Of a stretch of 37,462 nucleotides of DNA, positions 630 to 8,959 are shown piece after piece. The notes under the pieces were generated by a model. That model was not told the DNA's origin, made no database searches, and was given only the letters and a program-made list of their open reading frames with translations. Numbering within the stretch: the first letter of the stretch is position 1; the number at the start of each line of letters is the position of its first letter. This DNA is from Actinomycetota bacterium (lineage in GTDB: Bacteria; Actinomycetota; Thermoleophilia; Solirubrobacterales; Thermoleophilaceae). A program made the translations under genes and the position numbers. The stretch lies in the NCBI GenBank assembly GCA_019246335.1, contig JAFAQQ010000109.1, forward strand, positions 1 through 37,462, in the 5' to 3' direction.

Positions 630-1961
630 TCAACGCCCGCCGGCGAGCTGGGACAGCGACGGCATCTTCCCCTGCTGAAGCTGCCGCATCACCTTCTGCA
701 TCTGCCCGAACTGCTTCACGAGCTGGTTCACGGCCTGCACCGTCGTGCCCGATCCGCGCGCGATCCGCCGCCGCCGGGAGCCGTTCAGGATCTCCGGATG
801 CGCGCGCTCCTCGGGCGTCATCGAGGTGATGATCGCCTGGAGGCGGTCCAGGTCGCGGTCGTCGACCTTCAGATCGCCGAGGCCCAGGCCGCTCACCCCG
901 GGGAGCATCTTGAGGAGCCCCGAGAGCGGCCCCATGCGGCGCACCTGCTTCATCTGCGCCAGGAAGTCGTCGAGCGTGAACTGCTGCTTTCGGATCTTGC
1001 GCTCGAGCTCGGCGGCCTGCTCCTCGTCGAACTCGCGCTCGGCCTTCTCGATGAGCGTCATCATGTCGCCCATGCCGAGGATGCGCTGCGCCATCCGGTC
1101 GGGGTGAAAGCGCTCGAAGGCCTCGAGCTTCTCGCCGGTCGAGGCGTAGAGGATCGGCTTCCCCGTCACGGCCTTGACGGACAGCGCGGCGCCGCCTCGC
1201 GCGTCGCCGTCGAGCTTCGTCAGCACCACCCCGTCGAACTCGGCGGCGTCCGAGAACGCCTCGGCGACGTTGACGGCGTCCTGGCCGGTCATGGCGTCGA
1301 CCACGAGCAGGACGTCGTGTGGCTTCACCCGCTTCCGGATTCGGGCGAGCTCCTCCATCAGCTCGCGGTCGACGTGCAGGCGGCCGGAGGTGTCGACGAT
1401 CAGGACGTCGCGCTCCTCCGCGCGCGCCCGGTCAACCGCCCAGGCGGCGATCTCCACGGGATCGGGATCGGTTCCCTGCTCGTACACCGCCGCGCCCGCG
1501 GCCGAGCCGACCTTCACGAGCTGGTCGACCGCCGCCGGCCTGTACGTGTCGCACGCGGCGAGCGCCACGTCCCTGCCGTGCTCCTCCCGCAGGTGGCGGG
1601 CAAGCTTGGCGCAGGCGGTGGTCTTGCCCGAGCCCTGCAGGCCGGCCATCAGCACGATCGTCGGGGGACGCGGCGCGAACGCGATGTCGCGCGCGCTCCC
1701 GCCCATCAGCGCGGTGAGCTCCTCCCCCACGAGCTTCACCACCTGCTGCCCGGGATTCAGCGCGTCGAGCACCTCGCCTCCACGGGCTCGCTCGCCGACG
1801 GCCGCGGTGAACTCCTTGACGACCTGGAAGTTCACGTCCGCCTCGAGCAGCGCGAGCCGGACCTGGCGCATCGCCTTGGCGACGTCCTCCTCGGTCAGCT
1901 TCCCGCGTGAGCGGACGTCGGAGAGCGCGGACTGCAGCCGATCGGAGAGGGTCTCCAGCAC
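630..1961 (-). CDS. ffh: Signal recognition particle GTPase Ffh
   Basis: The 443-residue protein is the SRP54 homologue that binds signal sequences and 4.5S/SRP RNA and delivers ribosomes to FtsY at the membrane. An N-terminal helical domain is followed by the G domain: P-loop GLQGSGKTT near residues 107-115, DTYRPAAVDQL, DTSGR and TKLDGDARGG. The C-terminal methionine-rich M domain (about 300-430) includes GPLSGLLKMLPG and the RNA-binding SRRRRIARGSGT motif. Its partner ftsY lies about 5 kb away on the same strand. Length and start are typical. Confidence 0.97.
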   Translation of the reverse strand: MLETLSDRLQSALSDVRSRGKLTEEDVAKAMRQVRLALLEADVNFQVVKEFTAAVGERARGGEVLDALNPGQQVVKLVGEELTALMGGSARDIAFAPRPPTIVLMAGLQGSGKTTACAKLARHLREEHGRDVALAACDTYRPAAVDQLVKVGSAAGAAVYEQGTDPDPVEIAAWAVDRARAEERDVLIVDTSGRLHVDRELMEELARIRKRVKPHDVLLVVDAMTGQDAVNVAEAFSDAAEFDGVVLTKLDGDARGGAALSVKAVTGKPILYASTGEKLEAFERFHPDRMAQRILGMGDMMTLIEKAEREFDEEQAAELERKIRKQQFTLDDFLAQMKQVRRMGPLSGLLKMLPGVSGLGLGDLKVDDRDLDRLQAIITSMTPEERAHPEILNGSRRRRIARGSGTTVQAVNQLVKQFGQMQKVMRQLQQGKMPSLSQLAGGR

Positions 1962-6908: not shown

Positions 6909-7907
6909 CTACCCGCCGGACACGCCCAGGAGGGCGCGCGCGAAGTCGTCGGGGTCGAAGGGGCGCAGGTCCTCGAGCCCCTCTCCGATGCCGATCAGCT
7001 TCACCGGGACGCCTAGCTCCTGCGCGATGGCGAGCGCGATCCCGCCCTTTGCCGTTCCGTCGAGCTTGGTCAGCACGATGCCCGTCACGTCGACGGCCTG
7101 CTTGAAGAGGAGCGCCTGGCGGAGTCCGTTCTGCCCCGTGGTCGCGTCGATCGTGAGCAGCGTCTCGTGCGGAGCGCCGGGGAGCTGGCGGTCGATCACG
7201 CGGCGCACCTTCGCCAGCTCCTCCATCAGGTGCTCCTGGGTGTGGAGGCGACCCGCCGTGTCGATAATCGCGACGTCGCGGGTGCGCGAGCGGGCCACCT
7301 CGACCGCGTCGTAGGCCACGGCGCCGGGGTCGGCGCCCTCCGCCGCGCGAACGACCTCGGCCCCGGCGCGCTCCCCCCAAGCCGCGAGCTGCTCGACCGC
7401 GGCCGCGCGGAACGTGTCCGCGGCGCCGAGGACGACCGACAGGCCGAGCTCGTTTCGCAGGTGCCATGCGATCTTGCCGATCGTGGTGGTCTTGCCCGTC
7501 CCGTTCACGCCGGTGACCAGGACCACGGCGGGCCTGGCGCGCAGGTCGATCGTGTCGTCCCCACCGCGCGCGGCGTCGGCCAAGAGCTCGCATAACCGGC
7601 CGGTCAGCGCCTCGCCGCCTGCCAGGCCGCCGGAGCCGGCCTCGGTCTCGAGCCGCTGGACGATTGCCGCGGTCGTCGGCGCGCCGACATCGGCGTAGAT
7701 GAGGGTCTCCTCCAGCCGCTCCCAGGCATCGTCGTCCAGGGTCTGGAAGACGCTGGCCTGCAGCTCCGCGCCGAGGGCCTGACGGCTCTTCGCCATGTTG
7801 TCACGCAGGCGTGCGAAGAACCCGCGGCGCTGCTCCTCGGGCTCCGGCTCGGCGAGCTCGGCACGGTCGTCGCCTGCGACGAAGAGCTCGCGCCAGGTGC
7901 GGGCCAT
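6909..7907 (-). CDS. ftsY: Signal recognition particle receptor FtsY
   Basis: The 332-residue SRP receptor GTPase docks Ffh-ribosome complexes at the membrane. A short acidic N-terminal region (about 10-27) precedes the N domain, and the G domain carries GVNGTGKTTTIGK near residue 133, DTFRAAAVEQL, DTAGRLHTQ and TKLDGTAKGG. The short acidic A region is typical of actinobacteria, which lack the long E. coli A domain. The ATG at 7907 is the only sensible start. A 165-bp spacer with a large inverted repeat lies upstream, so the RNA leader of ftsY may be structured. NfeD follows immediately. Confidence 0.96.
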   Translation of the reverse strand: MARTWRELFVAGDDRAELAEPEPEEQRRGFFARLRDNMAKSRQALGAELQASVFQTLDDDAWERLEETLIYADVGAPTTAAIVQRLETEAGSGGLAGGEALTGRLCELLADAARGGDDTIDLRARPAVVLVTGVNGTGKTTTIGKIAWHLRNELGLSVVLGAADTFRAAAVEQLAAWGERAGAEVVRAAEGADPGAVAYDAVEVARSRTRDVAIIDTAGRLHTQEHLMEELAKVRRVIDRQLPGAPHETLLTIDATTGQNGLRQALLFKQAVDVTGIVLTKLDGTAKGGIALAIAQELGVPVKLIGIGEGLEDLRPFDPDDFARALLGVSGG

Positions 7908-7934
7908 CTAGATGATCGATTCCGAATCCGTGTG

Positions 7935-8049
7935 CCCCTGGGGCGGCGAAAATCCAGCTGGCGAAGGACGCAGGGCGAAGTCCATGCATGAATGCATGGA
8001 CGAGCCCGAAAACGCACGCCCAGCGAAGATTTGCAGCCGCATCCAGGGG
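7935..8049. repeat. 115-nt interrupted inverted repeat (possible structured RNA or palindromic element)
   Basis: The spacer between ftsY and the hydrolase gene folds on itself almost completely. Paired blocks from outside in are CCCCTGG/CCAGGGG, GCGGC/GCCGC, AAATC/GATTT, CTGG/CCAG, CG/CG, GGGC/GCCC and TCCATGCAT/ATGCATGGA around a GA centre. They are separated by small internal loops; the two largest (AAGGACGCA and GAAAACGCA) face each other and both end in ACGCA. On the plus strand the loops are purine rich, as in structured RNAs. On the minus strand it would lie in the ftsY leader, 27 nt before the start. I do not recognise the family. Confidence 0.8.
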
Positions 8050-8072
8050 TGCAGGGGTTTGGGATGGGTCAT

Positions 8073-8921
8073 CTACGGCAGGAATGCCAGAGCGCGGTCC
8101 AGCACGACCTCGGGCTTCTCCTCGGGGAGGAAGTGGCTCGCGCCCGGCACCCGCTCGACGTCCATGTCGTCGGCGTGCTCGCGCCAGCTCTCGGTGACCG
8201 AAGCCCCGAGGGGGTCGGACTGGCCGATCAGCAGTCGAGTCGGCACCGTGAGCCGGTAGCGATTGAACTCGCCCGCCGCCAGCGGGCGCAGCTCGTGGAG
8301 CAGGAAGGTGCGGTACATCTGCACCGTGGCGTTCGCGTAGTCCGGCCGCTTGACCGCGTCCTCGTAGACCCGCAGCTCCTCGTCGCTGAAGGTGCCGGCC
8401 TTGCGGGCCGCCTGGAGGAGCATGCGCGGAAAGCCGAATCGGATGGAGAGCCGCCCGATGACCGGGCCGCCGAGGACCAGCTGGTACCACGCCGTCAGAA
8501 GCGTCCGCGGACTGATCGCTCCCGGCGATGGCCACGGAGGCGGGATGGAGAGCGGCATGAAGCGCTCGAAGCGCTCGGGGTTCTGCAGCACCGCGATGAA
8601 CCCGGCGAAGGCGCCCCAATCGTGGCCGACGTAGCGGGTGCGCTCGATGCCGAGCGCGTCGAGGAGCCCGACCAGGTCGGCGGCGAGCTGGGACTTGAGG
8701 TAGCCCGACCGGGGAGCAGCCGACCACCCGTGTCCGCGAAGGTCGGGGCAGATCACGCGAAACCGCTCGGACAGCGGGCCGATGAGGTGCCGCCACATGA
8801 ACCAGTGCTGCGGCCAGCCGTGCTGGAGCACAAGCGGGTCGCCAGCGCCGGCCTCCGCGTAGTGCATGCGCAGGCCGTCGACCTCCGCATAGCGGTGCTG
8901 GACACCATCGACGTGCGGCAT
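8073..8921 (-). CDS. Alpha/beta hydrolase, epoxide hydrolase/dehalogenase type
   Basis: The 282-residue protein has the oxyanion-hole motif HGWP (residues 34-37), PDLRGHGWS and the nucleophile elbow VGHDWG, with Asp101 where esterases have Ser. An Asp nucleophile is typical of epoxide hydrolases and haloalkane dehalogenases. Later come a probable acid in QSDPLGAS and the catalytic His in GASHFLPEE. The substrate cannot be told. ATG at 8921 is chosen; a GTG at 8933 is the alternative. The gene lies 38 nt downstream of the smc stop on the same strand, so it is probably read from the smc transcript. Its metabolic role among housekeeping genes is unclear. Confidence 0.88.
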   Translation of the reverse strand: MPHVDGVQHRYAEVDGLRMHYAEAGAGDPLVLQHGWPQHWFMWRHLIGPLSERFRVICPDLRGHGWSAAPRSGYLKSQLAADLVGLLDALGIERTRYVGHDWGAFAGFIAVLQNPERFERFMPLSIPPPWPSPGAISPRTLLTAWYQLVLGGPVIGRLSIRFGFPRMLLQAARKAGTFSDEELRVYEDAVKRPDYANATVQMYRTFLLHELRPLAAGEFNRYRLTVPTRLLIGQSDPLGASVTESWREHADDMDVERVPGASHFLPEEKPEVVLDRALAFLP

Positions 8922-8959
8922 CTCGAGCGTCACGGGCGGGACTCTATGGACCGCCCGTG

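What the first reader, a model, noticed from the sequence alone, without database searches (positions are those of the whole stretch)
7935..8049. 115-nt interrupted inverted repeat fills the ftsY upstream spacer
Seven pairs of complementary blocks nest in order around TCCATGCAT-GA-ATGCATGGA, with facing internal loops that both end in ACGCA. About 35 base pairs are found with only short loops, far beyond chance for a 165-bp spacer. On the plus strand the loops are purine rich (GA, GAAG, GAAAACGCA, CGAA), which is typical of structured RNAs. On the minus strand it would form the ftsY leader. It may be a new ncRNA, a cis-regulatory leader, or a palindromic mobile repeat.
Basis: seen in the sequence. 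Interest (0 to 1): 0.7.

Follow-up and report, generated by a model that had tools for sequence, protein, structure and literature searches.

The report
Class-wide mobile palindrome in operon junctions
The hairpin beside ftsY is one copy of a roughly 165-base repeat found in dozens of places in many soil bacteria of one class; it apparently jumps, lands between neighbouring genes, and brings its own stop signal and often a ribosome-binding-like sequence, so the landing may do little harm.

Summary
The inverted repeat is real, but it is the inner part of a larger element: a 165-nt palindrome, AGATGA...TCATCT (window 7910-8074), that fills the gap between an alpha/beta-hydrolase gene and ftsY. 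It is a dispersed repeat: 26 covariance-model matches in this 2.5-Mb draft genome, matches in 46 of 61 relatives (up to 60 per genome) and in 73 of 150 genomes of the class Thermoleophilia; outside the class only in one family of the phylum. No Rfam family matches. Pairs covary strongly, and wobble pairs fall mostly on the plus strand, so the folded plus strand (RNA or single-stranded DNA) is what selection sees. Yet 87 of 103 copies between co-directional genes lie antisense to them. Empty sites in relatives fit insertion without target duplication, often at a stop/start junction; the ends restore a stop codon, and about a third of arms carry a Shine-Dalgarno-like sequence near the junction. 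It is a MITE-like mobile palindrome, comparable to ERIC or BIME but a distinct family. Y1/RAYT, IS110, IS630 and reverse transcriptase were not detected in this genus: the mobilising enzyme is unknown. A cis-regulatory ftsY leader is not supported.

The parts
7910..8074 (+). Whole element, palindromic ends AGATGA...TCATCT, 165 nt; plus strand is the folded strand
   Evidence: Sharp common boundaries of copies, empty sites, fold
7910..7945 (+). Left outer arm
   Evidence: Pairs with 8038-8074; arm pairs kept by G-U rather than A-C across copies
8038..8074 (+). Right outer arm; with flanking A it gives the TAG stop (8073-8075, minus strand) of the hydrolase gene
7946..8037 (+). Conserved core shared across the class
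   Evidence: Covariance model R2, 90.5 bits, E 2.2e-20; covariation
7964..7972 (+). Left side of conserved internal loop, AAGGACGCA
   Evidence: Nearly invariant in 33 cores
8008..8016 (+). Right side of the internal loop, here GAAAACGCA, consensus GAGGACGC: changed in this copy
7981..8000 (+). Apical hairpin TCCATGCAT-GA-ATGCATGGA
   Evidence: eight covarying pairs
6909..7907 (-). ftsY (SRP54-type GTPase); ATG 2 nt from the element end
   Evidence: Pfam PF00448, E 5.1e-72
8073..8933 (-). Alpha/beta-hydrolase gene whose stop codon is formed by the element end
   Evidence: Pfam PF00561, coordinates

Best explanation
It is one copy of a non-autonomous mobile palindrome (about 165 nt) spread through the class Thermoleophilia. 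Shown: high copy number; mostly unshared positions and empty sites in relatives; palindromic ends AGATGA...TCATCT or AGTG...CACT; a conserved fold specific to the plus strand; frequent placement with one end in a stop codon and the other next to a start codon; strong antisense bias. Inferred: the plus strand, as RNA or single-stranded DNA, is recognised through its conserved core (GGAC/GGAC loop and GA loops) by an unidentified enzyme, which joins the palindrome between two bases without a target duplication longer than 1 bp, often at T^RRTG stop/start overlaps. The end bases AG recreate a TAG or TAA stop for the upstream gene, and in about a third of arms a GGAG-like sequence sits near the junction, so operon expression can survive. 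Insertions with the plus strand in the sense direction are removed by selection or made less often. The copy here is changed in the conserved loop and may no longer be active.
For: 12 further copies at 84-96% identity in the same genome with common ends and unrelated flanks; 46 of 61 relatives, up to 60 copies, 73 of 150 in the class. Empty sites: ftsY junction in G002, C44, C29, C119 in G001/G002. Covariation: 16 of 25 pairs changed on both sides, 91.3% cells paired against 24-39% when slid. Strand: plus more stable in 114 of 124, G-U 449 against A-C 78 in the arms. Placement: 87 against 16 antisense among co-directional gene pairs; start codon exactly one base past the minus-strand 3' end in 21 of 63, past the other end in 1; SD-like tetramers 36 of 123 against 16.6 shuffled.
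Against: No mobilising enzyme found. No transposition was observed directly, and empty sites come from other species, so ancestral bases are uncertain. The ftsY site is filled in two species, so some copies persist or are re-hit. Orientation bias has two possible causes that were not separated. Gene calls are from a simple codon-usage caller.
Confidence: 0.8

Rival explanations
1. A conserved trans-acting or antisense small RNA gene family transcribed from the plus strand at many loci, kept because the RNA does something for the cell rather than because it moves.
For: Plus-strand-specific folding and strong covariation with invariant loops; copies lie antisense in operons.
Against: Positions mostly not shared between species, empty sites, copy bursts within genomes; no promoter-like or terminator-like site at the locus by a simple scan.
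Confidence: 0.12
2. A cis-regulatory intercistronic element acting in the mRNA (minus strand), for instance processing, stalling at the stop codon or coupling translation across the hairpin; in this copy an ftsY leader.
For: Sits between stop and start codons, SD-like sequence in about a third of arms. REPs within 15 nt of a stop codon are reported to lower translation (PMC12306157); ERIC affects mRNA depending on orientation (PMC2229807).
Against: The minus strand folds worse and A-C mismatches fall on it; G002 lacks it at ftsY; flanking genes are mostly unrelated. May be a side effect of an insertion.
Confidence: 0.1
3. A REP/BIME-type element moved as single-stranded DNA by a Y1 (HUH) RAYT transposase.
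For: Strand-specific hairpin, no target duplication, ends that supply a TAG stop as reported for GTAG REPs (PMC3733652).
Against: Y1_Tnp found in none of the 31 genomes of the family, although most carry the element, while the search rang in 5 of 14 control genomes. Length and core unlike 20-40 bp REPs.
Confidence: 0.08
4. An ERIC/RUP-type MITE with TA target duplication, moved by an IS630/Tc1-mariner transposase.
For: TA at both ends in the window copy and C44; C44 empty site has a single TA.
Against: C29 and C119 junctions do not fit TA duplication; only 24 of 63 copies have A after both ends; DDE_3 not found in G000, G001, G002.
Confidence: 0.07

Closest known systems
ERIC / IRU sequences of enterobacteria (127 bp)
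   Same: Imperfect palindrome of similar size, intergenic, many copies, co-transcribed with neighbours, orientation matters for mRNA effects (PMC2229807)
   Different: ERIC has TA ends and target duplications (PMC2229807); here no duplication model fits better. Different sequence, core and host class
REP / BIME / REPIN with RAYT
   Same: Strand-specific hairpin, high copy, element ends give TAG stops to neighbours (PMC3733652)
   Different: REPs are 20-40 bp with GTAG tag and RAYT genes; here 165 nt, no GTAG-tag architecture, no Y1_Tnp in the family
RUP of pneumococcus (107 bp), IS630-type MITE
   Same: About 100-bp intergenic non-autonomous repeat
   Different: RUP targets TA and shares TIRs with IS630-Spn1 (PMC2229807); no such partner found here
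bcr1 of the Bacillus cereus group
   Same: About 155-bp mobile intergenic repeat with proposed structure and no known enzyme (from memory; paper not held)
   Different: Unrelated host; sequence not compared here

Membership tests
MITE-like non-autonomous mobile palindrome (general kind) | Short, non-coding, terminal inverted repeats, many dispersed copies | tested here: met
MITE-like non-autonomous mobile palindrome (general kind) | Insertion polymorphism (filled and empty sites) | tested here: met
   between species
MITE-like non-autonomous mobile palindrome (general kind) | Autonomous partner with the same ends | tested here: inconclusive
   None found; only four enzyme families searched in draft genomes
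ERIC | TA at termini with target duplication | tested here: not met
ERIC | ERIC consensus sequence | not tested
   No direct alignment made
REP/RAYT | Y1 transposase of the RAYT type in the genome | tested here: not met
REP/RAYT | 20-40 bp palindrome tagged GTAG or CGTC | tested here: not met
   Length 165 nt; ends AGATGA/TCATCT or AGTG/CACT
IS630-type MITE (RUP) | DDE_3 transposase available | tested here: not met
   Absent in G000, G001, G002; present in 11 of 61 relatives
Known structured RNA (Rfam 15) | Match to a family model | tested here: not met
   No match at E up to 1
New structured RNA family | Compensatory changes and strand-specific pairing | tested here: met
New structured RNA family | Transcription of the folded strand | not testable with these tools
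   No transcript data; promoter scan empty
cis-regulatory leader of ftsY | Conserved upstream of ftsY in the sense strand | tested here: not met
   Absent at the G002 junction; fold is antisense; present beside many other genes

The most novel reading that the evidence does not exclude
The element is a mobile hairpin moved as folded single-stranded RNA or DNA by machinery not yet described: it joins itself without target duplication at stop/start overlaps of operons, in a preferred direction relative to the start codon, and carries its own stop codon and often a ribosome-binding site.
Probability: 0.3. Interest if true: 0.85.

Novelty: new variant of a known kind. Interest (0 to 1): 0.6.

Why it matters
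It is a large family of structured repeats, absent from Rfam and not found in the papers searched, that sits at stop/start junctions of operons across a whole bacterial class. Its plus-strand-specific fold, the 21-to-1 polarity towards start codons and the failure to find four common mobilising enzyme families in the window's genus make the question of how it moves directly testable. It also shows how selfish DNA can be nearly invisible to an operon by bringing its own stop codon and, in many copies, a ribosome-binding-like sequence.

Tried and rejected
Rfam at loose threshold: nothing. TA target duplication: suggested first by the ftsY and C44 sites, rejected on C29, C119 and the flanks of 63 copies. 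Y1/RAYT, reverse transcriptase, IS110 and IS630: not detected in the window's genus. First covariance model R1 had a structure string shifted by one column; dropped and rebuilt as R2. Promoter and terminator scan at the locus: nothing. Papers on Thermoleophilia or Conexibacter repeats: nothing relevant in the held library. Resemblance of GGACGCA to the c-di-GMP-I riboswitch core and of the hairpin to attC sites was considered from memory only; Rfam gave no riboswitch match, and the ends do not fit the attC core site as I recall it.

Full report
WHAT WAS CLAIMED AND WHAT IS THERE. They are there, and more: outer arms 7909-7941 and 8043-8075 pair as well. The stretch 7909-8075 folds on the plus strand at -106.4 kcal/mol, z -11.8, none of 200 shuffles as good; on the minus strand at -75.5, z -5.7; as plus-strand DNA at -49.2, z -6.4. 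The element fills the space between the stop of an alpha/beta-hydrolase gene and the ATG of ftsY, both on the minus strand.

IT IS A REPEAT. The window lies in a 2.5-Mb draft genome, G000. DNA search finds 12 further copies, 84-96% identical, most over nearly the full length, plus fragments. The copies share sharp ends, TAGATGA...TCATCTA, while flanks are unrelated. Several contigs end inside a copy, so the count is probably low. Congeners G001 and G002 have 14 and 10 DNA matches.

A SHARED CORE ACROSS THE CLASS. More distant copies share a core of 88-92 nt: GCGAAAACCGAGC-stem-AAGGACGCA-GGG-hairpin-CCC-GAGGACGC-stem-GCGAAGGTTTGCAGC. In an alignment of 33 cores, 16 of 25 pairs have changes on both sides, 91.3% of cells pair (24-39% when the partner is slid 1-3 columns), and no shuffle of 500 reaches the covariation score. 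The structure was derived from the same alignment, which favours it on cells paired. The internal loop has GGAC on both sides, which would allow a symmetric tandem G-A motif; that is inference. Named hits of a DNA pattern are mostly Thermoleophilia, Solirubrobacterales and related soil actinobacteria. No Rfam 15 family matches at E up to 1.

WHICH STRAND IS FOLDED. The plus strand is more stable in 40 of 41 cores as read from the table and in 114 of 124 full hairpins. In the outer arms G-U outnumbers A-C oppositions 449 to 78, in the core 95 to 17. Copies are related, so these are not independent events, but they come from many species. Selection therefore sees a folded plus strand, either RNA or single-stranded DNA; these data do not separate the two.

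WHERE IT SITS. With a simple codon-usage gene caller, 128 distinct copies give 87 between two genes on the minus strand, 16 between two on the plus strand, 10 convergent, 8 divergent. So the folded strand is usually antisense to the operon it sits in. The upstream gene's stop lies 33-38 nt from the core in most full-length copies, that is, in the element end. Among 63 copies with scored ends, the start codon of the next gene lies exactly one base past the minus-strand 3' end in 21, and past the other end in 1. Typical junctions read ...GGAGGAGTCACT|GATG or ...CACT|AGTG. The flanking bases are A/A in 24, and A or T on the stop-codon side in 55. An SD-like tetramer lies near the end in 36 of 123 minus-strand arms against 16.6 in shuffles, and in 41 of 123 plus-strand arms against 23.5: about a third of arms, an enrichment of roughly two-fold, concentrated about 10-14 nt from the end. 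In the window copy there is no clear SD.

EMPTY SITES. In G002 the hydrolase stop overlaps the ftsY start, CCC-TGATGG, with no element. For other copies a query of joined flanks finds unfilled relatives: C44 in G001 reads GGGC-TA-ACCTC; C29 in G002 reads CACGCTGCTACTC where the filled copy is CACGGCT|AGATGA...TCATCT|GCTACTC; C119 in G001 reads CCTTTCTGTTCGG where the filled copy is CCTT|AGATGA...TCATCT|TGTTCGG. One model fits: a palindrome AGATGA...TCATCT placed between two bases, no duplication above 1 bp. A TA duplication fits C44 and not C29 or C119. These are different species, so ancestral bases are not certain.

RECENT MOVEMENT OR HOMOGENISATION. The ftsY site is filled in both G000 and G001. 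The G000 copy is 96% identical to another G000 copy and 88% to its G001 counterpart; the G001 copy likewise resembles G001 copies most. Either the site was hit twice or copies within a genome are homogenised. In another gene pair shared by G001 and G023 the element has opposite orientation. Most flanking genes are not shared between copies of different species.

WHAT MOVES IT. Unknown. Y1_Tnp (PF01797) gives nothing in the 31 genomes of the family, with controls ringing. RVT_1, IS110 DEDD and DDE_3 are not found in G000, G001 and G002 although present in some relatives. Genomes are drafts, and other families were not searched.

MECHANISM, BEST GUESS. Plus-strand folding and the invariant core suggest recognition of a single-stranded hairpin by an enzyme or binding factor; the palindrome is then joined at sites such as T^RRTG. 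AG at the end makes TAG or TAA with the flank, and the SD-like sequence in some arms may support the next start. The antisense bias may come from selection against the more stable hairpin in the mRNA or from polarity of insertion; the 21-to-1 figure does not decide between them. The window copy has GAAAACGCA in place of GAGGACGC and TCCAG in place of TCGAG, so it may be inactive.

COMPARISON. It works like ERIC, BIME, RUP and probably bcr1 as a small non-autonomous intergenic palindrome. It is not ERIC by its junctions, not REP/RAYT by size and enzyme, not an IS630 MITE by junctions. GTAG REPs also lend TAG stops to neighbours (PMC3733652), REPs within 15 nt of a stop codon are reported to affect translation (PMC12306157), and ERIC effects on mRNA depend on orientation (PMC2229807). 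Hence a local effect on ftsY or the hydrolase is plausible but secondary.

VERDICT. Observation confirmed and extended; mobile repeat supported; ftsY leader not supported; a plus-strand RNA remains possible and needs transcript data.

Noticed in passing
L024 (G000:C8), 1508-1914: Four tandem copies of the core, period 102, between what look like rpsR and rplI (genes recognised by eye); the same gene pair carries one copy in G010.
   Followed up: partly
L047, L065 (G002), L062 (G001): Copies with an extra palindromic insertion in the left half of the core (for example GGTCGCCGCTGTATACGCG...), as if a second small repeat had landed in the first.
   Followed up: no
L001 and L058: The ftsY copies of G000 and G001 resemble copies in their own genome more than each other (96% against 88%): repeated insertion or homogenisation.
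   Followed up: partly
L028 (G001) and L049 (G023): Same gene pair with the element in opposite orientation in two genera.
   Followed up: no
L267 (G254, family f12): A clear copy with long arms in a family outside the class; f12 is the only such family seen.
   Followed up: no
L319, 640-669 (IMG/VR contig): One viral-collection contig matches the core pattern; may be a misassigned host contig.
   Followed up: no
window 1071-1811 (-): Second SRP54-type GTPase homologous to FtsY (probably Ffh) in the same gene cluster as smc and ftsY.
   Followed up: no
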